NCBI RefSeq assembly: GCF_004135735.1
Contig: NZ_CP012670.1
Location: 6,712,501-6,776,500, forward strand
Source of the DNA: Sorangium cellulosum
Lineage (GTDB): Bacteria; Myxococcota_A; Polyangia; Polyangiales; Polyangiaceae
Direction of reading: 5' to 3'
DNA length: 64,000 bases
Each line of letters opens with the position of its first letter. Position 1 is the stretch's first letter. This document shows, piece by piece, positions 23,464-55,348 of this stretch. Below the pieces are notes generated by a model that saw only the letters and a list, made by a program, of their open reading frames with translations, was not told the DNA's origin and ran no database searches. The position numbers were made by a program, and so were the translations under genes.

Positions 23464-24165
23464 ATGCTGATCGTCGAGGATCTTTCGGTCTACTACGAGG
23501 AGAGCCGCGTCCTGTCGCGGGTGAGCCTCGACGTCGCGCCCGGCCGGGTGTCGTGCCTCCTGGGCCGCAACGGGGTCGGCAAGACGACGCTGCTCAAGGC
23601 GATCATGGGCGTGCTGAAGCCGCGGCGCGGGAGGGTGGCGCTCGGCGGGGTGGACCTCACCTCGCGCTCGCCGAGCGACAGGGCGCGCGCGGGGATCGGC
23701 TACGTGCCGCAGGGGCGGGGGATCTTCCCCCACCTCACCGTGCGGGAGAACCTGCTCATGGGGTTCGAGGCGAAGCGCGATCCCACGCCGAGCCCGGCGG
23801 CCGAGGAGGAGATGCTGGAGATGTTCCCGGTGCTCAAGGTGATGCGCGGGAGGGCGGCGGGGACGCTGAGCGGCGGGCAGCAGCAGCAGCTCTCGCTCGC
23901 GCGCGTGCTCCTGCGCAAGCCGAAGCTGCTCTTGCTCGACGAGCCCACGGAGGGGATCCAGCCGTCGATCATGCAGGAGATCGGGGAGGTGATCAGGGGG
24001 CTCGGGCGGAAGGGCGACATGGCGATCCTGCTCGTCGAGCAGTTCCTGGATTTCGCGCTGTCGACGGCGAGCGAGTACTTCATCATGGATAACGGGGGGA
24101 TCGTGCGGCGGGGGAGCGTCTCGGAGCTCGACGACGAGACCGCGCGGGAGTTCCTCTCGGTGTGA
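23464..24165 (+). CDS. urtE: Urea ABC transporter ATP-binding protein
   Basis: This is a 233-aa LivF-like ATPase. Walker A is GRNGVGKTTLLK, signature LSGGQQQQLSLARVLL, Walker B LLLLDEPTEGIQPS and H-loop LLVEQFLDFA. The ATG at 23464 lies 5 bp after the urtD stop and fits the usual length. It closes the urt operon. A long hairpin begins 8 bp beyond its stop. Confidence 0.95.
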   Translation: MLIVEDLSVYYEESRVLSRVSLDVAPGRVSCLLGRNGVGKTTLLKAIMGVLKPRRGRVALGGVDLTSRSPSDRARAGIGYVPQGRGIFPHLTVRENLLMGFEAKRDPTPSPAAEEEMLEMFPVLKVMRGRAAGTLSGGQQQQLSLARVLLRKPKLLLLDEPTEGIQPSIMQEIGEVIRGLGRKGDMAILLVEQFLDFALSTASEYFIMDNGGIVRRGSVSELDDETAREFLSV

Positions 24166-24173
24166 GGGGGGGC

Positions 24174-24297
24174 GGCGCGGGTGGTGGGGCCCTCGGGGTG
24201 CTCACCTCCGGGGCTTGCGTTCCGGCGAGCCCCTTTTGTGGCTCGCCTGCACTTCAGCCCCTCCGGTGAGCACCCCGAGGGCCCCACCACCCGCGCC
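24174..24297. repeat. Long hairpin element, copy 1 (33-bp perfect arms, 58-nt centre)
   Basis: Arms 24174-24206 and 24265-24297 are perfect reverse complements. The 58-nt centre begins and ends with tcc and can fold further. Inside it, ggggc pairs with gcccc, and ggcgagcc pairs with ggctcgcc around a cccttttgt-type loop. It lies between the convergent urtE and the regulator gene, 8 bp after the urtE stop, so it may act as a bidirectional terminator. Copies 2 and 3 are at 26225-26348 and 29022-29123. An alternative is a mobile hairpin (MITE/REP-like). Confidence 0.85.
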
Positions 24298-24312
24298 GCT
24301 CGACGGGGGAGA

Positions 24313-25278
24313 TCACCCCCCGTCCAGCGGGAAGAGCTGCAGGTTCACGACGACGACCCGCTCGGGCGGCCGCGACTCGGCGATCACCGCGCGCATGCTC
24401 TGGAAATAGCTCACGTGGAGCTCGGAGAGCCGCGCGAGATCGGCCGCGGAGATCGTGAACACGTTGAACGAGAAGCGGCCCTCGGCCCTGCGCGTCAGCC
24501 GCTCCAGCCCGACGCCGGCCCAGAAGCACTTGAGCCGGTGCTCGGCGTCCGGATCGGGGCGCGTGTCCACGGTCCTTATCGGCGTGACGATCCAGCGCCC
24601 GCGGCGCCTCCGGATCTGGCCGGCCTCCGCGAGGCGGTGCAGGCAGCGCGCCTCGTCCTCGACGGGGAACCCGAGCCGCCGCGCGATCCACCCCGGCTCG
24701 TGGCGCGGGAGCGCCCGGTACGCCGGCATCTCCAGGGCGAGCAGGATGGCGGGGAGCAACGGCTCCTCGTAGACGGCGCGGCGCTGGGCCTCGAGCGTGC
24801 GCCACGCCGCGCTCGTCGCCGGGAGCGCCGCCGGGTCCGCGAAGAGCGCGACGAAGTCGAGCAGGCGCAGCGAGCAGGCCTCGACGAGCCGCAGGAAGTC
24901 CGGGAGCCGCGGCTCCGCGGCGCCCGAGAGCCAGCGCGCGACCGCGTAACGGCTCCTGCCCGCGCGCCGCGCCACGTCCACGATGGGCGACATCGCGCGC
25001 GTCTCGGCCAGGAACGCCGTGACGCCCGCGGGGGAGGCCGGGTCCGTGTGCGCGAGCCAGGCGGGCGGCGACGGAAAGAAGCGCCCCAGCGCCCCCGCGA
25101 CGTCGACGCCCGCGCGCCGCGCCGCGACGAGGAACGTGGCCGCTGTCGGCCACCGCCGCCCGGACTCCCACGTGTAGACCACGTTGGTGCGGAACCCGAG
25201 CCGGCGGCTGAAGGCGACCTGGGAGCGCCGGCCCCGGAGGGCGCGGATCAGCTCTTTCGCGAGAGATTCATGGTCCAC
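24313..25278 (-). CDS. TIGR02147/DUF4423-type HTH regulatory protein
   Basis: This is a 321-aa protein. The GTG at 25278 (VDHESLAKELIRALRGRRSQ) is the only start that fits the first helix. The N-terminus contains an XRE-like helix-turn-helix (FSRRLGFRTNVVYTWESGRR), and a second HTH-like stretch lies at RAGRSRYAVARWLSG. The C-terminal half (LGFPVEDEARCLHRLAEAGQI, ERVVVVNLQLFPLD) matches the pattern of the TIGR02147/DUF4423 proteins, which occur mainly in Fibrobacter, Bdellovibrio and myxobacteria. A regulatory role is inferred. It diverges from the lipoprotein gene at 25387. Confidence 0.8.
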   Translation of the reverse strand: MDHESLAKELIRALRGRRSQVAFSRRLGFRTNVVYTWESGRRWPTAATFLVAARRAGVDVAGALGRFFPSPPAWLAHTDPASPAGVTAFLAETRAMSPIVDVARRAGRSRYAVARWLSGAAEPRLPDFLRLVEACSLRLLDFVALFADPAALPATSAAWRTLEAQRRAVYEEPLLPAILLALEMPAYRALPRHEPGWIARRLGFPVEDEARCLHRLAEAGQIRRRRGRWIVTPIRTVDTRPDPDAEHRLKCFWAGVGLERLTRRAEGRFSFNVFTISAADLARLSELHVSYFQSMRAVIAESRPPERVVVVNLQLFPLDGG

Positions 25279-25289
25279 GTATCGCAGGA

Positions 25290-25329
25290 TCGCACATCCG
25301 AGGGTCTTGTTGCGGTATGGAATGTGCGA
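25290..25329. promoter_or_regulatory. Inverted repeat in divergent promoter region
   Basis: tcgcacat (25290-25297) and atgtgcga (25322-25329) are perfect reverse complements 24 bp apart, between the divergent regulator (start 25278) and lipoprotein (start 25387) genes. This could be a two-half-site operator for the adjacent regulator. Evidence is the repeat and its position only. Confidence 0.35.
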
Positions 25330-25386
25330 ACCTGAGCTGGCGTGCCCCCGCGGGCAGACGCAAGGTTGGCCGCAGGAGGTCACGAG

Positions 25387-26085
25387 ATGATTGCTCGACG
25401 TCGGCTTACTTGTTCTTGGGCGCGCGCGGTGATGGCGAGCCTCGCGCTCTTCGGGTGCGTCGATGACGCCGGCAGCGGCCCGCAGGGCGGCCAGATCGGC
25501 GGAGTTTATACCGAGGGAGGGAGGTGCGAGGATCAGAAGCAGCCCATCGGCGAGACCGACGTCTCCCCGCTGGGCTTCTCGGCGAGCGAGGTGATCGCGT
25601 CCATCGCCGGTGAGCGAACGGCGCCGCTCACGTGGGCGAACGGCGGCAGCACGACGGTGACCGTCCTCGTGGGCGCGCCGACCGCCGTGCGCTTCGTCGA
25701 GTCCACGCGCGTGGAGGACAGCGATCCGAGCGGCGTCGAGCCGGCGTTCGCCGTGGACTGCGCCGATCACCTGGAGATCGATGTCCCCCTGTCGTTCACG
25801 ACGGCGGACGGGGCGTTCGCCGAGTCGCTGGAGGTCACGCTCAGGGCCACGGAGGCCGGCGCCGCCCGCTTCCACCACGAGCTCGACCTCGCCGCGCTGG
25901 AGGGCTCGTACGAGGTGACCGAGATCGATCCCTCGGCGTACAAGGAGGTGTCCGTCTACCTGCGCGGCACGATCAGCGAGAGCGCCGTCACGGGCGAGAT
26001 CGATGGCACCGCGGAGAGCCACCCGAGCGGGAGCGGACCGGACGCGACGGTCTCGGCGACGCTGTTCGAGGTCGCGACGTTCTGA
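25387..26085 (+). CDS. Hypothetical lipoprotein (232 aa)
   Basis: The ATG at 25387 follows a GGAGG site 6 bp upstream. The N-terminus is a lipoprotein signal (AVMASLALFGCVDD). The mature protein has about four cysteines and a beta-rich pattern (TVTVLVGAPTAVRFVESTRV, VSVYLRGTISESAVTGEIDG). No family is recognised. It diverges from the TIGR02147-type regulator gene, so it may be under its control. Confidence 0.8.
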   Translation: MIARRRLTCSWARAVMASLALFGCVDDAGSGPQGGQIGGVYTEGGRCEDQKQPIGETDVSPLGFSASEVIASIAGERTAPLTWANGGSTTVTVLVGAPTAVRFVESTRVEDSDPSGVEPAFAVDCADHLEIDVPLSFTTADGAFAESLEVTLRATEAGAARFHHELDLAALEGSYEVTEIDPSAYKEVSVYLRGTISESAVTGEIDGTAESHPSGSGPDATVSATLFEVATF

Positions 26086-26537
26086 TCCCGGGCCGTTGCG
26101 CCGGGGGCACACGGCGCGGCGGCGCCCGGGACGCCGCGCGACGCGCGGGGGCCGCGCTCAGCCGAAGGAATCGAACGCGGTCCAACGCGGTCCCGGCGCC
26201 CTCGCCGCGCGCGGCGGCGGCCTGGAGCGGGTGTGGGCCGGGCCTGGGACGCTCGCCTCCGGGCCCTGCGCTCCGGCGGGCCCCTTGTGTGGCCCGCCTG
26301 CGCTCCAGGCCCTCCGGCGAGCGTCCCAGGCCCGGCCCACACCCGCTCTCGATCACGCGCCCGTCCAGGAGGATGTCCGGGTCGAGCCTTGCGACGCCCC
26401 ATCGCGGCGCGCTGACGACGTAGGTGCGGAAGAGGGATTGGCAGGAGACGCGGTTGCGCGGAAGATGATACGGCGCTGCGCCGTGGGGTGGGGTCCACCT
26501 CGCGTTCCAGCGAGTCTCTTGTCGTTGGAGCGAGCGA
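26086..26537. other. Intergenic region holding hairpin copy 2
   Basis: This stretch of ~450 bp lies between two plus-strand lipoprotein genes. It contains the hairpin at 26225-26348. The rest shows no convincing gene. The last ~100 bp before 26538 presumably hold the promoter and leader of the next gene. Confidence 0.5.
26225..26348. repeat. Long hairpin element, copy 2 (33-bp perfect arms, 58-nt centre)
   Basis: Arms 26225-26257 and 26316-26348 are perfect reverse complements, and the centre is 58 nt, exactly the geometry of copy 1. The centre differs from copy 1 at about 10 positions. Paired positions change together: the a-t pair in ggcgagcc/ggctcgcc becomes g-c, and a g-c pair in the ggggc/gcccc stem becomes c-g. 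The ctcacc/ggtgag end of the arms becomes ctcgcc/ggcgag. It lies 140 bp after the stop at 26085. Confidence 0.85.
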
Positions 26538-27872
26538 ATGGACGCACGACTTGTTGCAGGTCTCCTCGTGCTGGCCCTGTCGGCCATTGCAGGTTGCGGG
26601 GGCGATGATGACGGTGAAGGCGGCGCGGGTGTCACGGGAGTCACGGGCACGGGCGGCGCGGGGGGCGCCGAGCCCGCGGGCGCGGGCGGTCACGGCGGCT
26701 CCGAGCCCATAGGCACGGGCGGTCACGGCGGCTCCGAGCCCACGGGCACGGGCGGCGGTGACGGCGGAGGCGGCGGAGGCGGCGGCGGCGACGGCGGAGG
26801 CGGCGACGGCGGCGACAGCGGTGGTGACGGCGGCGGCGACGGCGGCGACGGCGGCGACGGCGGCAGCGGTGGTGACGGAGGAGGGGGCGGCGACGGCGGC
26901 GAGGGCAGCGGCGGCACCGACGAAAGGACGGAGGCGCTCTGCGATGACGGGCTCGACGACGACGACGACGAGCTCACCGACTGCGATGATCCCGACTGCG
27001 CAGAGATCTGCGCCGCGCCCTTCGAGGAGGCCTGCGCGGCCGCGCCGGCCGCGACGGAGCTGGTCTCGGGCGACACGTCCTCGGGCACCGACCTGTTCCA
27101 GGGCACGTGCAACGCCGGCCTCGGGCTGGAGCAGCTTCACGTGTACACGCCGCCCGACGGGCAGTCGGGCACGCTGATCGTCGTGCTCGAGTCGGAGACC
27201 GACCAGGGGATCTACGCGCGCTCGGTGTGCGCCGACCGGCGCGACGAGGCCGAGATCGCCTGCGCCGATATCAACGGGGCCGGGTTCGCCGAGGCGTTCG
27301 CGATCGCCATCGACGAGGGCGAGTCCGTGGCCGTCTTCGTCGATGCGTACATGCCCGGCGAGGAGGGGCCTTACACGCTGGAGCTCTACCTCGATGAGGC
27401 GATCTGCGGCGACGGCGAGACCACCCTGCCCGAGCAGTGCGACGACGCCAACACGGAGACCGGCGACGGCTGCGACCGCTGCGTGGCCGAGCTCGACGTG
27501 CTCTGCGAGGAGGCCGAGGTCGTCGAGAGCGGGGCCGCGATCCAGGGCGACACGTCGACCGGCTGGAGCGCCTTCACGGGTAGCTGCAACCGCCCGCGGA
27601 CGCGCGACAAGGTCTACCGGTTCACGCCGCCCAGCGACGGACAGCTCACGGCGCGCCTGTGGTCCGAGGCCGATCACGTCCTTTATCTGCGGACGAGCTG
27701 CGCGGACCCGGGCTCCGAGGTCCTCTGCGTGGACGACGCGCTCGAGGGGGAGGAGCTGCTCGACGCCAGGGTCGCTGGCGGCGAGCCGGTCTACCTCGTC
27801 GTCGATGGCTACGGGTCACCGGAGAACATCGGGTTTTACGACCTCGAGGTCCAGTTCTCCCCGGGCCCCTGA
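26538..27872 (+). CDS. Lipoprotein with Gly-rich linker and myxobacterial Cys-rich repeat
   Basis: This is a 444-aa protein. It has a lipoprotein signal (LLVLALSAIAGCGGDDD) followed by ~110 residues of Gly/Asp-rich low complexity that includes tandem HGGSEP-TGTGG units. An Asp-rich element (CDDGLDDDDDELTDCDDPDC) comes next, then two beta-rich PPC-like domains with the repeated pattern GDTSSGTDLFQGTCN / GDTSTGWSAFTGSCN. Between them is the motif CGDGETTLPEQCDDANTETG, the myxococcal Cys-rich repeat known from surface proteins. The protein is probably exposed on the outer membrane. Function is unknown. Confidence 0.85.
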   Translation: MDARLVAGLLVLALSAIAGCGGDDDGEGGAGVTGVTGTGGAGGAEPAGAGGHGGSEPIGTGGHGGSEPTGTGGGDGGGGGGGGGDGGGGDGGDSGGDGGGDGGDGGDGGSGGDGGGGGDGGEGSGGTDERTEALCDDGLDDDDDELTDCDDPDCAEICAAPFEEACAAAPAATELVSGDTSSGTDLFQGTCNAGLGLEQLHVYTPPDGQSGTLIVVLESETDQGIYARSVCADRRDEAEIACADINGAGFAEAFAIAIDEGESVAVFVDAYMPGEEGPYTLELYLDEAICGDGETTLPEQCDDANTETGDGCDRCVAELDVLCEEAEVVESGAAIQGDTSTGWSAFTGSCNRPRTRDKVYRFTPPSDGQLTARLWSEADHVLYLRTSCADPGSEVLCVDDALEGEELLDARVAGGEPVYLVVDGYGSPENIGFYDLEVQFSPGP

Positions 27873-27903
27873 GCGCCGGCGCCGCGCTCCTCCGCGCCGG
27901 CGG

Positions 27904-28983
27904 ATGCGCTACGCTGCGCGCGTGCGCCCTCCGACCCGGACACAGCCCTCTCCCCGCAACCTCGTCATCGCCTCCGCCGCCCTGCTCGCCGTGGGGGCCT
28001 GTCAGCCGGCGCCCGCGCCGCCGGCCCGCTCCTCCGGCGACGCGCCGGCGCACCACGGCGCGACGGGCGCAGCAACGCCGCCCGCGCCCCGCGGCCCCGC
28101 GCCGGCGGCGCCCGGCGACGCCCCGCCCCCTCGGGACGGCGCCGCGCCGCCGGCCCAGGTGGCCGTCGACGCCGGCGCGGCGGGCGCTGCGCTCGACGGC
28201 CGATCGCCCGTGCGGCTCGCGCCGCCGCCGTTCGCTCAGGCGCTGTTCCGGCCGGCGCCGGCCGGTGGCTCCAGCGCGCCGCGCCTCGTGAAGATCGCAG
28301 AGAAGAAGAACGCGATCACGGACCAGGAGGCGTGGTTCACCCGGAACGGTCTCTCGCTGCCGATCCTGAGCGTCCCGGGCTCCCCGCAGCGCGGCGACGG
28401 CGCCCTCCCCTCCTTCGTTCCCGCGCGCCACGGCGATCACAGGCTCGTCAGGGCCATCGATCACGGAGACCACCTCGCGCTCTTCTACGGTCCCGACGCC
28501 TCCGAGGCGCGCCTCGTCGCGATCCTCGACGGGGCGCACAGGGTCGTCGCCTTCCTCGATTTCGACAGCTTCCTCACGCCCCCCGAGCACGATCCGAAGG
28601 AAGCCCAGTTCGTGCGGGGCCAGGTCCACTGGGCCGTGGCCAGAGACGGCGTGCTCTACGTCTCGACCGGCCACAGCACGTACGCGGCCTCGTCCAGGGG
28701 CAAGAACGCCTATCTGTCGGCCCTCGATCTCGCCACAGGCCAGCTCCTCTGGCAGAGCGCGCCGCTCGTCTGCAATGCGGAGAACTTCGTCCTGCGCGGA
28801 GATCATCTCCTCTGCGGCTACGGGTTCACGGCGGAGCCAGACTTTCTGTTTGTACTCGAACGCACAACCGGCACGATCGTCTCGAAGATCCCGATCAAGA
28901 GCGGGCCAGAGGTCCTTGTCGAGAAGGACGGGAAGCTCTTCGTCCGCACGTACGATACGGATTACGTCTTCGAGATCCGCTGA
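27904..28983 (+). CDS. Lipoprotein with PQQ-like beta-propeller blades
   Basis: This is a 359-aa protein. The ATG at 27904 gives an N-terminus with a signal and lipobox (ASAALLAVGACQPAP); a GTG at 27922 is an alternative start. A Pro/Ala-rich linker runs to about residue 105. The rest has propeller-like strands (GVLYVSTGHSTYAAS, YLSALDLATGQLLWQSAP, FLFVLERTTGTIVSKI) typical of PQQ-like or BamB-type repeats. It follows the previous lipoprotein gene by 31 bp and may be in the same transcript. Its ligand is unknown. Confidence 0.8.
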   Translation: MRYAARVRPPTRTQPSPRNLVIASAALLAVGACQPAPAPPARSSGDAPAHHGATGAATPPAPRGPAPAAPGDAPPPRDGAAPPAQVAVDAGAAGAALDGRSPVRLAPPPFAQALFRPAPAGGSSAPRLVKIAEKKNAITDQEAWFTRNGLSLPILSVPGSPQRGDGALPSFVPARHGDHRLVRAIDHGDHLALFYGPDASEARLVAILDGAHRVVAFLDFDSFLTPPEHDPKEAQFVRGQVHWAVARDGVLYVSTGHSTYAASSRGKNAYLSALDLATGQLLWQSAPLVCNAENFVLRGDHLLCGYGFTAEPDFLFVLERTTGTIVSKIPIKSGPEVLVEKDGKLFVRTYDTDYVFEIR

Positions 28984-29498
28984 CCCCGCAGCCGGATCGC
29001 GGGCCGCGCGCCGCCCCGCGCTGGCGCGCCGGGCGCTCACCTCCGGGGCCCGCGTCCGGGCGAGCTCCTTTTCTTTCTGGCCCGCCTGCGCTTCAGCCCC
29101 TCCGGTGAGCCCCCGGCGCGCTGCGCCGGCGCTGCGCCGCCCGCCGCCCACGCCCCGGTCGAGGATCACGGCGGTCCGGTTCGCCCCGGCGCCGCGCCAC
29201 CCGGGCGCGCACGATCGGGGCAGATGGGCTCGTGGATGAGCCCGGCGCGGGACGCCCCGCGTGTCGCAAAGTGCCTCGTCGAAGAACACCCCGGCGCCGC
29301 CGCGTCCTCCCCCGGTCCCGCCTGCGCGCCGGCCAGGAGCTTGCGCCTCGAGCGCAGAACCTGCGCCTGACCGCGAAAGGGATCGCTCCGCGCGGCCTCA
29401 CCTCCGCTCGACCACGCGGGCGCGCTCCGCGTCGCCGCGCGGCCGGATCACCATGGCAGCGATATTGCTAGTCATTCTCCCGAGCACACGAGGTTTTC
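28984..29498. other. Intergenic region holding hairpin copy 3
   Basis: This stretch of ~515 bp lies between two plus-strand genes. The hairpin lies at 29022-29123. I see no convincing gene in 29124-29498, although some open frames exist because of the high GC content. The last part probably contains the promoter of the 29499/29940 gene pair. Confidence 0.5.
29022..29123. repeat. Long hairpin element, copy 3 (shorter arms)
   Basis: Arms 29022-29041 and 29104-29123 pair with one mismatch and a wobble end, around a 62-nt centre. The centre keeps the tcc ends, the ggggc/gcccc stem and the gcctgcgcttcagcccc block of copies 1 and 2, with a longer terminal loop. It begins 39 bp after the stop at 28983. 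Its diverged arms show that the centre is more conserved than the arm sequence, while pairing is kept. Confidence 0.75.
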
Positions 29499-55188: not shown

Positions 55189-55348
55189 CGTCTGCCGTAT
55201 GCCCGAGGTCCTCCGAGGCAGGGGGCGTGTCCCCGTTCGCGCGTGACGTCAAGCGCGTCGCCGCCGCGCCCCGGGGGACCCGGAGGTGAGCACCCCAAAC
55301 GCGACCACCACCCCCCGCCGGGCGATGGCGAGCCGCACGGCGCGGAGC
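55001..55348. other. Intergenic region between EEP and kelch genes
   Basis: Apart from the small lipoprotein candidate and the half hairpin element at about 55279-55315, I see nothing else supported in this stretch. It is upstream of the EEP gene and so should hold its promoter. Confidence 0.4.
55279..55315 (-). repeat. Half copy of the long hairpin element family
   Basis: On the minus strand the sequence reads ggtggtcgcgtttggggtg followed by ctcacctccggg. This matches the left arm end and first centre bases of copy 1 (ggggtgctcacctccgggg). The right half is missing. It lies ~35 bp beyond the stop of the kelch gene, the same 3' position as other copies. Confidence 0.55.

What the first reader, a model, noticed from the sequence alone, without database searches (positions are those of the whole stretch)
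24174..29123. Family of long hairpins with identical geometry and compensatory base changes
Seen: copies at 24174-24297 and 26225-26348 each have 33-bp perfect arms and a 58-nt centre. Copy 3 (29022-29123) has 20-bp arms and a 62-nt centre. In the centre, paired positions change together (a-t to g-c in the ggcgagcc stem; g-c to c-g in the ggggc stem; a-t to g-c at the arm end). The unpaired tcc ends and the tgcgctcca-like strand are conserved. Arms differ in sequence between copies but stay complementary. This is what is expected of a structured RNA, or of a mobile hairpin that keeps its fold. All copies sit shortly after gene stops. I do not recognise it as a named element.
Basis: partly seen in the sequence, partly recalled or inferred. 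Interest (0 to 1): 0.8.

Follow-up and report, generated by a model that had tools for sequence, protein, structure and literature searches.

The report
Mobile DNA hairpin family in Sorangium
The three hairpins are copies of a small jumping DNA element that has spread to at least 150 places in this soil bacterium's genome, often just behind genes, and whose two halves appear to stay complementary because DNA copying rewrites one half from the other.

Summary
It is a 114-nt palindromic, non-autonomous transposable element (MITE-like): ends GGTGGTG, 8-bp target-site duplications (48 of 128 copies; 4.6 expected), and sites without the element in relatives (10 of 12 tested). Arms differ between copies yet stay complementary. 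G·T mismatches are not favoured over A·C (17 vs 31), and some copies carry multi-base rewrites of one side from the other, which points to template switching in DNA rather than selection on an RNA fold. The same process seems to turn duplicated 8-mers from direct into inverted repeats (inverted in 72 of 128; copies with direct repeats have arms nearer subfamily consensus, median distance 2 vs 6); this step is inferred. The central hairpin is homologous to that of a second hairpin family whose ends match an IS630-type insertion sequence. Elements cluster behind stop codons with an orientation bias. The transposase was not found; four insertion-sequence families were tested.

The parts
24174..24297 (+). 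Copy 1: palindromic element. The 114-nt element with 28-nt arms is 24179-24292; flanking 24172-24178 / 24293-24299 (gcggcgc/gcgccgc) are complementary flanks.
   Evidence: same place as locus L041 (G000:C1:6736671)
26225..26348 (+). Copy 2: palindromic element. 114-nt element 26230-26343; flanks gagcg/cgctc complementary.
29022..29123 (+). Copy 3: degenerate copy with enlarged apical loop and decayed outer arms.
   Evidence: E 1.3e-9; not in the model's training set
55279..55312 (-). Truncated half copy: one complete terminal arm (55285-55312) plus TCCGGG of the core, nothing recognisable beyond.
24313..26098 (.). Segment between copies 1 and 2 (a minus-strand gene, then a plus-strand lipoprotein-like gene 25387-26085) whose best matches in relatives lie away from those of the gene left of copy 1: synteny break beside the hairpins.
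   Evidence: in the single-contig relatives G001 and G004 the two best matches are 5.4 and 3.8 Mb apart

Best explanation
The hairpins are copies of a MITE-like transposable element (family F1) that amplified in this Sorangium genome. Shown: the dispersed family, 8-bp target-site duplications, and sites without the element in relatives. Inferred: an unidentified transposase, probably of DDE type and making an 8-bp staggered cut, recognises the terminal inverted repeats (outer GGTGGTG, inner GGGGNGCTCACC) and inserts the element at GC-rich, semi-palindromic 8-mers (roughly CGNNNNCG), often just behind stop codons. After insertion the long palindrome undergoes intrastrand template switching during DNA synthesis: one arm is copied onto the other, so point changes become paired changes and the arms diverge between copies while staying complementary. 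When copying overshoots the element's end, one copy of the target-site duplication is rewritten as the reverse complement of the other, so a direct repeat becomes an inverted repeat and the palindrome grows by about 7-12 bp. The central hairpin is a module shared with a second hairpin family (F2), whose ends match those of an IS630-type insertion sequence.
For: Family: all 150 scored candidates match in own genome at E <= 0.001 (cap reached); one match each in two of 58 relatives, both same genus. Ends: consensus stops at arm position 28, complementarity continues to about position 36 and reaches the shuffled level near 39. Duplications: an exact 8-mer direct repeat in 27 of 128 copies (18 at offset 28; 9 at 27 and 2 at 29, two of these also at another offset), shuffled mean 0.1-0.2 per offset; peak at width 8 and the even widths nested in it, not at 7 or 9; 48 of 128 at >=7/8 against 4.6 by shuffling. 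Sites without the element: 10 of 12 joined-flank sites have spanning hits in same-genus genomes; at L063 the 8-mer GCCCGGGC stands once in L225 (variants in four other relatives) and as GCCCGGGC/GCCCGGAC around the element in the host; at L032 CGGCGTTG stands once in L236 (one-base variant in two others) and twice in the host. DNA-level copying: over 109 nearest-neighbour pairs, 315 two-sided paired against 104 one-sided arm changes; G·T 17 vs A·C 31; 73 of 146 parses have perfect 28-bp arms, with 63 distinct arms among 70 full-length perfect ones at 67% mean identity; internal loop TCC rewritten to GGA in 4 of 146 parses, longer rewrites in L013 and L108. Direct to inverted: left 8-mers of direct-only (19) and inverted-only (51) copies have the same self-palindromy (4.0 vs 4.0 of 8; control 2.5), and copies with direct repeats and short inverted flanks (29) have arms nearer subfamily consensus than inverted ones (45): median 2 vs 6, p = 9e-5. 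F2: core homology up to 55/62 identical; IS with F2 ends.
Against: No autonomous partner was found. IS256, ISL3 and IS1595 profiles gave nothing in the own genome, and the ISKra4-like element found there (below that family's cut-off) shares only the duplication size and GG-rich ends. No inverted-only site had a relative aligned well enough to prove the ancestral state: at L101 one relative (L231) carries CGCCCGCC, matching the direct 8-mer at 7/8 and the inverted one at 5/8, but at L056 relative L233 fits the left 8-mer at 2/8 and the right one at 5/8, and L006 and L098 are unclear. Palindromic duplications (26 copies direct and inverted at once) are, by my rough estimate, more common than a CGNNNNCG preference alone would give, so target choice contributes. 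Inverted-flank length correlates only weakly with age proxies (rho 0.27, p = 0.002; rho -0.17, p = 0.06). Among very close pairs, two-sided and one-sided arm changes are nearly equal (48 vs 40). Most two-sided changes are single positions (248 of 286 runs), which selection could also produce. TCC/TCC is kept in 133 of 146 parses, so copying does not erase every mismatch.
Confidence: 0.8

Rival explanations
1. A structured non-coding RNA or transcription terminator kept by selection on the RNA fold; copies spread by duplication and compensatory changes restore RNA pairing.
For: Strong predicted folds; location behind stop codons, 59 of 98 within 40 nt of a gene 3' end against 10% of non-coding control positions; orientation bias 47 same vs 19 opposite, p = 0.0008; single-position paired changes are common.
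Against: No wobble signature (G·T 17 vs A·C 31); flanks outside the element also are complementary; 8-bp direct duplications and sites without the element show insertion; no Rfam family at gathering score; none of 53 genomes outside the genus had a match.
Confidence: 0.12
2. A REPIN-like element moved by a RAYT (Y1 HUH) transposase: a REP-doublet hairpin whose arms show compensatory changes.
For: Similar size, intergenic location and copy number; REPINs also show common compensatory changes (PMC3116915, passages read).
Against: 8-bp target-site duplications are not expected of single-strand RAYT transposition (recalled knowledge). The most conserved part here is the centre and inner arm, not outer 16-mers as described for REPINs. 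RAYT genes were not searched for.
Confidence: 0.04
3. The inverted flanks pre-date insertion: the element prefers the centre of existing palindromes such as native terminators, and no rewriting of duplications occurs.
For: 26 copies have palindromic duplications; the L063 target GCCCGGGC is palindromic in the empty site of L225; strong preference for gene 3' ends; no inverted-only site has a decisive empty counterpart.
Against: 51 inverted-only copies lack an 8-bp direct repeat, yet their left 8-mer is no more self-palindromic than in direct-only copies (4.0 vs 4.0), and inverted copies have arms further from consensus; templated rewrites are directly visible in cores.
Confidence: 0.2

Closest known systems
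Bacterial MITEs with long-hairpin transcripts (ERIC/IRU, RUP, Correia/NEMIS, Rickettsia RPE, YPAL)
   Same: About 100-200 bp, non-coding units, long stem-loop, target duplication in most; the orientation of ERIC matters for its effect on mRNA stability (PMC2229807, passages read).
   Different: Most described ones have TA termini and are A+T-rich; here an 8-bp GC-rich duplication, GG ends, nearly perfect palindrome, and arms that differ between copies but stay complementary.
REPINs (REP doublets forming hairpins, RAYT-mobilised)
   Same: Short hairpin elements in high copy number between genes, with common compensatory changes (PMC3116915, passages read).
   Different: Conserved outer 16-mers there, conserved centre here; 8-bp target duplications here.
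IS630-type insertion sequence of Sorangium and its hairpin derivatives (family F2 of this report)
   Same: Homologous central hairpin (up to 55/62 identical).
   Different: F2 ends are (CTA)GTACCGCGTCGCC..AAGTTCGTCCCTGG, shared with a roughly 1.6-kb element encoding a DDE_3-domain protein, and by eye look like TA/CTAG insertions (not tested on empty sites); F1 ends are GGTGGTG with 8-bp duplications.
Template-switch (quasipalindrome) homogenisation of inverted repeats
   Same: Creates or repairs perfect stems and paired changes, with multi-base jumps (PMC8794818, passages read; PMC8604942, abstract and outline read).
   Different: Here seen across a mobile family, including flanks whose ancestral state (direct duplication) is expected from the insertion mechanism.

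Membership tests
MITE (non-autonomous DNA transposon) | Short, non-coding, dispersed, many copies | tested here: met
   114 nt; 150 matches (cap reached)
MITE (non-autonomous DNA transposon) | Terminal inverted repeats and fixed-length target-site duplication | tested here: met
   28-nt arms; 8-bp direct repeats in 48 of 128 vs 4.6 by shuffling
MITE (non-autonomous DNA transposon) | Sites without the element in relatives | tested here: met
   10 of 12 sites have spanning hits without the element; duplication readable at L063 and L032
MITE (non-autonomous DNA transposon) | Autonomous partner with the same terminal inverted repeats | tested here: inconclusive
   28-mer search found hairpins, truncated halves and one lone end, L166; IS256, ISL3, IS1595 profiles absent (54-56); ISKra4-like element has different terminal repeats (63, 66)
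REPIN / RAYT | No target-site duplication | tested here: not met
   8-bp duplications, (the criterion itself is recalled knowledge)
REPIN / RAYT | RAYT gene in the genome | not tested
IS630-derived element (TA target) | TA duplication and IS630 terminal repeats | tested here: not met
   F1 has GGTGGTG ends and 8-bp duplications; F2 carries the IS630-type ends
Structured RNA family (Rfam) | Match to a described family at gathering score | tested here: not met
   0 matches in the window; below gathering score only microRNA-precursor models matched in 24100-26400
Structured RNA under selection | Mismatched cells enriched for G-U over A-C | tested here: not met
   G·T 17 vs A·C 31 among 96 mismatched of 3444 arm cells in 123 copies

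The most novel reading that the evidence does not exclude
The central hairpin is an exchangeable functional module rather than a passive filling: it has been joined to two unrelated sets of transposon ends (8-bp and TA-type) and sits in preferred orientation behind stop codons, so it may act in the transcript (3'-end formation or stability) or in transposition itself, while DNA template switching continually rebuilds the arms around it.
Probability: 0.25. Interest if true: 0.75.

Novelty: new variant of a known kind. Interest (0 to 1): 0.55.

Why it matters
Compensatory changes are usually read as evidence of selection on RNA structure. Here a mobile family of at least 150 copies gives a natural experiment in which pairing appears to be restored by DNA copying, including in target-site duplications that should have started as direct repeats. 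This makes the question of template switching versus selection directly testable, and warns covariance-based RNA discovery about mobile palindromes.

Tried and rejected
Structured RNA: Rfam gave nothing at gathering score and only microRNA-precursor models below it at relaxed threshold (best E 6e-8 but 54.5 bits against a cut-off of 168). Autonomous partner by terminal-repeat pattern: the 80 own-genome matches are hairpins or, among the ten single ends fetched, degenerate hairpins, truncated halves and one lone end (L166) with unrelated sequence behind it and no second end seen. The same-genus search with a looser pattern was inconclusive: counts were 1.7-5.3 times the reversed control, the listed rows (G003, part of G004) had at least 2 mismatches and I saw no pair, and rows of G001, G002 and G005 were not listed. 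Transposase families IS256, ISL3, IS1595: no match at E <= 0.001. ISKra4: two copies, below the family's cut-off, with other terminal repeats. Composite transposon carrying the 1.9-kb segment between copies 1 and 2: outer flanks show no shared 8-mer (by eye). Empty-site test at window copies 1 and 2: synteny broken, not informative. Phage or plasmid carriage: no exact core in viral contigs, no plasmid match. Named genomes: an F1-specific pattern found nothing; a looser core pattern found So ce26, So0157-2 and one Streptomyces record that I take as chance and did not follow; the tool warns that the window's own genome may be left out. Papers: 0 for Sorangium+MITE+inverted repeat; 0 for myxobacteri+miniature inverted-repeat+palindrom; 13 for Sorangium cellulosum+transposable element+repeat, 12 listed, none opened after seeing titles and abstract starts; 1 for miniature inverted-repeat transposable+compensatory+hairpin+bacteria, not opened; 0 for transposable element+inverted repeat+template switching+homogenization+MITE.

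Counting notes: the 146 parses include two second parses of one copy (L004, L127; seen). The 128 are those with at most 5 arm mismatches (18 parses dropped); the 123 (pair and mismatch counts) also have length 114. Fully palindromic L013 was not parsed and is not in these counts. In one search the class sizes (19, 26, 51, 32) use one fixed rule, while the age comparison (29 vs 45) uses the classes. Gene contexts come from my own GC-by-codon-position rule, not a gene finder; 23 of 146 contexts were unknown. Empty sites: the alignment used only the 30 loci returned.
Full report
WHAT IS THERE. The window holds two intact copies (24174-24297, 26225-26348), one degenerate copy (29022-29123) and one truncated half (55279-55312, minus strand) of one repeat family. 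Copy 3 was not used to build model R1 and still scores E = 1.3e-9.

THE FAMILY. In the 11.26-Mb host genome, a 22-base core pattern gave 147 forward and 155 reverse matches at up to 2 mismatches, against 75 and 81 for the reversed-pattern control. The covariance model built from 29 copies matched in all 150 candidates that were scored, so 150 is a floor. Among 58 relatives only G001 and G004 (same genus) had one match each at E <= 1e-6, with stricter filters and at most 57 candidates scored per genome. As far as tested, the expansion is confined to this species.

ELEMENT AND ENDS. I collected 146 parses from the fetched loci. Walking outward from the central loops, sequence conservation stops at arm position 28. 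The outer ends read GGTGGTG and the inner arm GGGGNGCTCACC, with about nine hypervariable positions between them. Complementarity is 84-99% through position 29, remains 62-79% at positions 30-36, where no consensus exists, and reaches the shuffled level near position 39. Direct repeats next to the element peak at width 8 and at the even widths nested in it, with nothing notable at 7 or 9: 27 of 128 copies have an exact 8-mer at offset 27, 28 or 29 (18 at offset 28; shuffled mean 0.1-0.2 per offset), and 48 of 128 have at least 7 of 8 against 4.6 by shuffling. Subfamilies with closely similar members and slightly different arm lengths (27 or 28) probably explain the offsets (my reading of L096 and L063).

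SITES WITHOUT THE ELEMENT. For 12 sites I searched joined flanks, without the element, in five same-genus genomes. Ten gave spanning hits without the element and two (L043, L127) gave none. At L063 all five relatives lack the element; the 8-mer GCCCGGGC stands once in L225, variants of it in the other four, and the host has GCCCGGGC and GCCCGGAC on the two sides. At L032 three relatives lack it and carry CGGCGTTG (L236) or a one-base variant (L249, L250) once, where the host has CGGCGTTG on both sides. This is insertion with an 8-bp target-site duplication, and so a MITE-like transposon.

WHY THE ARMS COVARY. On the 29-copy alignment 93.2% of cells pair and 248 cells are changed on both sides against 82 in shuffles; in the 33 arm pairs only 3 cells are changed on one side and still paired. 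Over 123 copies the mismatched arm cells number 96 of 3444: 17 G·T and 31 A·C, so RNA wobble is not favoured. Over 109 nearest-neighbour pairs two-sided paired changes exceed one-sided by 315 to 104; among 58 very close pairs they are 48 to 40, as expected if single changes arise first and are then copied across. Most two-sided changes are single positions, which by themselves selection could also give. Multi-base rewrites are seen directly: the loop TCC becomes GGA in four parses (L045, L066, L139, L154), L083 has GAA facing TTC, L108 carries a longer tract copied from the other side, and L013 is a full palindrome. These are the marks of template switching in inverted repeats described in PMC8794818 (passages read) and PMC8604942 (abstract and outline read).

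DUPLICATIONS THAT TURN ROUND. Of 128 copies, 72 have flanks that are inverted rather than, or as well as, direct repeats (2.6 by shuffling). In one search, with a fixed offset rule, 19 are direct only, 26 both, 51 inverted only and 32 neither. The left 8-mer of inverted-only copies is as little self-palindromic as that of direct-only copies (4.0 of 8 in both; control 2.5). Arms of copies with direct repeats and short inverted flanks (29) lie nearer to subfamily consensus than those of inverted copies (45): median 2 of 28 against 6, p = 9e-5. The simplest reading is that a young insertion has direct duplications, and later copying across the hairpin rewrites one of them as the reverse complement of the other. 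The step is inferred. At inverted-only sites relatives are too diverged to decide: at L101 relative L231 carries the direct form at 7/8 against 5/8 for the inverted one, while at L056 relative L233 fits the left 8-mer at 2/8 and the right at 5/8. The 26 copies with palindromic duplications show that target preference also plays a part.

A SHARED CENTRE. So ce26 and So0157-2 carry hairpins with homologous centres but other arms. These F2 ends occur as facing pairs about 1.6 kb apart in three places of So0157-2; the one read (L179, which stops short of its right end) encodes a 365-aa protein with a DDE_3 domain, recognised from memory as IS630-type. F2 hairpins are also in the host genome. Core identity between an F1 consensus and F2 reaches 55 of 62; five of six F2 copies score above every one of 200 shuffles and one (L184) does not. 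So two families with different ends share one central hairpin.

CONTEXT. By my own coding-signature calls, 58 of 146 parses lie between tandem genes, 40 convergent, 11 divergent, 14 inside an open frame and 23 unknown. The nearest gene 3' end is within 40 nt for 59 of 98, against 10% of non-coding control positions in the same loci. Where just one 3' end is within 60 nt, 47 copies run with the gene and 19 against it (p = 0.0008); 15 have two such ends and 65 none. This may be target preference, selection, or a transcript function; these data do not separate them.

WHAT IS MISSING. The transposase. Terminal-repeat searches found no full element in the own genome and were inconclusive in the genus; three transposase profiles were absent. 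An ISKra4-like element (two copies, 99.9% identical over 1581 bp, below the family's cut-off) has a GGGTGTAG end and, in L254, an 8-bp duplication ACCTGGAC, but its terminal repeat is otherwise different. I regard the partner as unknown.

VERDICT. Real, and a mobile element rather than an RNA gene. A new variant of the bacterial MITE kind, notable for apparent DNA-level maintenance and growth of its palindrome and for a centre shared between two sets of transposon ends.

Noticed in passing
L254 and L255 (G000:C1:2191898 and 11100075): Two 99.9% identical copies of a 1581-bp ISKra4-like insertion sequence (479-aa open frame, below the family's cut-off) with GGGTGTAG ends; 8-bp duplication ACCTGGAC at L254, none seen at L255.
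   Followed up: partly
L179, L183 (So0157-2, G004): IS630-type element of about 1.6 kb whose ends are shared by hairpin elements (F2) in So ce26, So0157-2 and the host genome.
   Followed up: partly
window 24313-26098: Segment between copies 1 and 2 whose best matches in relatives lie away from the best matches of the neighbouring gene (5.4 Mb apart in G001, 3.8 Mb in G004): rearrangement boundaries at or near the hairpins.
   Followed up: partly
window 26538-27872: Open frame of 444 aa with a lipoprotein-like start and a long Gly/Asp-rich low-complexity stretch; this stretch matches many places in relatives.
   Followed up: no
L166 (G000:C1:10547717): Lone F1-like terminal repeat followed by sequence without the core and with no second end seen; remnant or other element.
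   Followed up: partly
L173 (Streptomyces sp. CB01635 scaffold3): Exact match to the loose core pattern outside Sorangium; probably chance.
   Followed up: no
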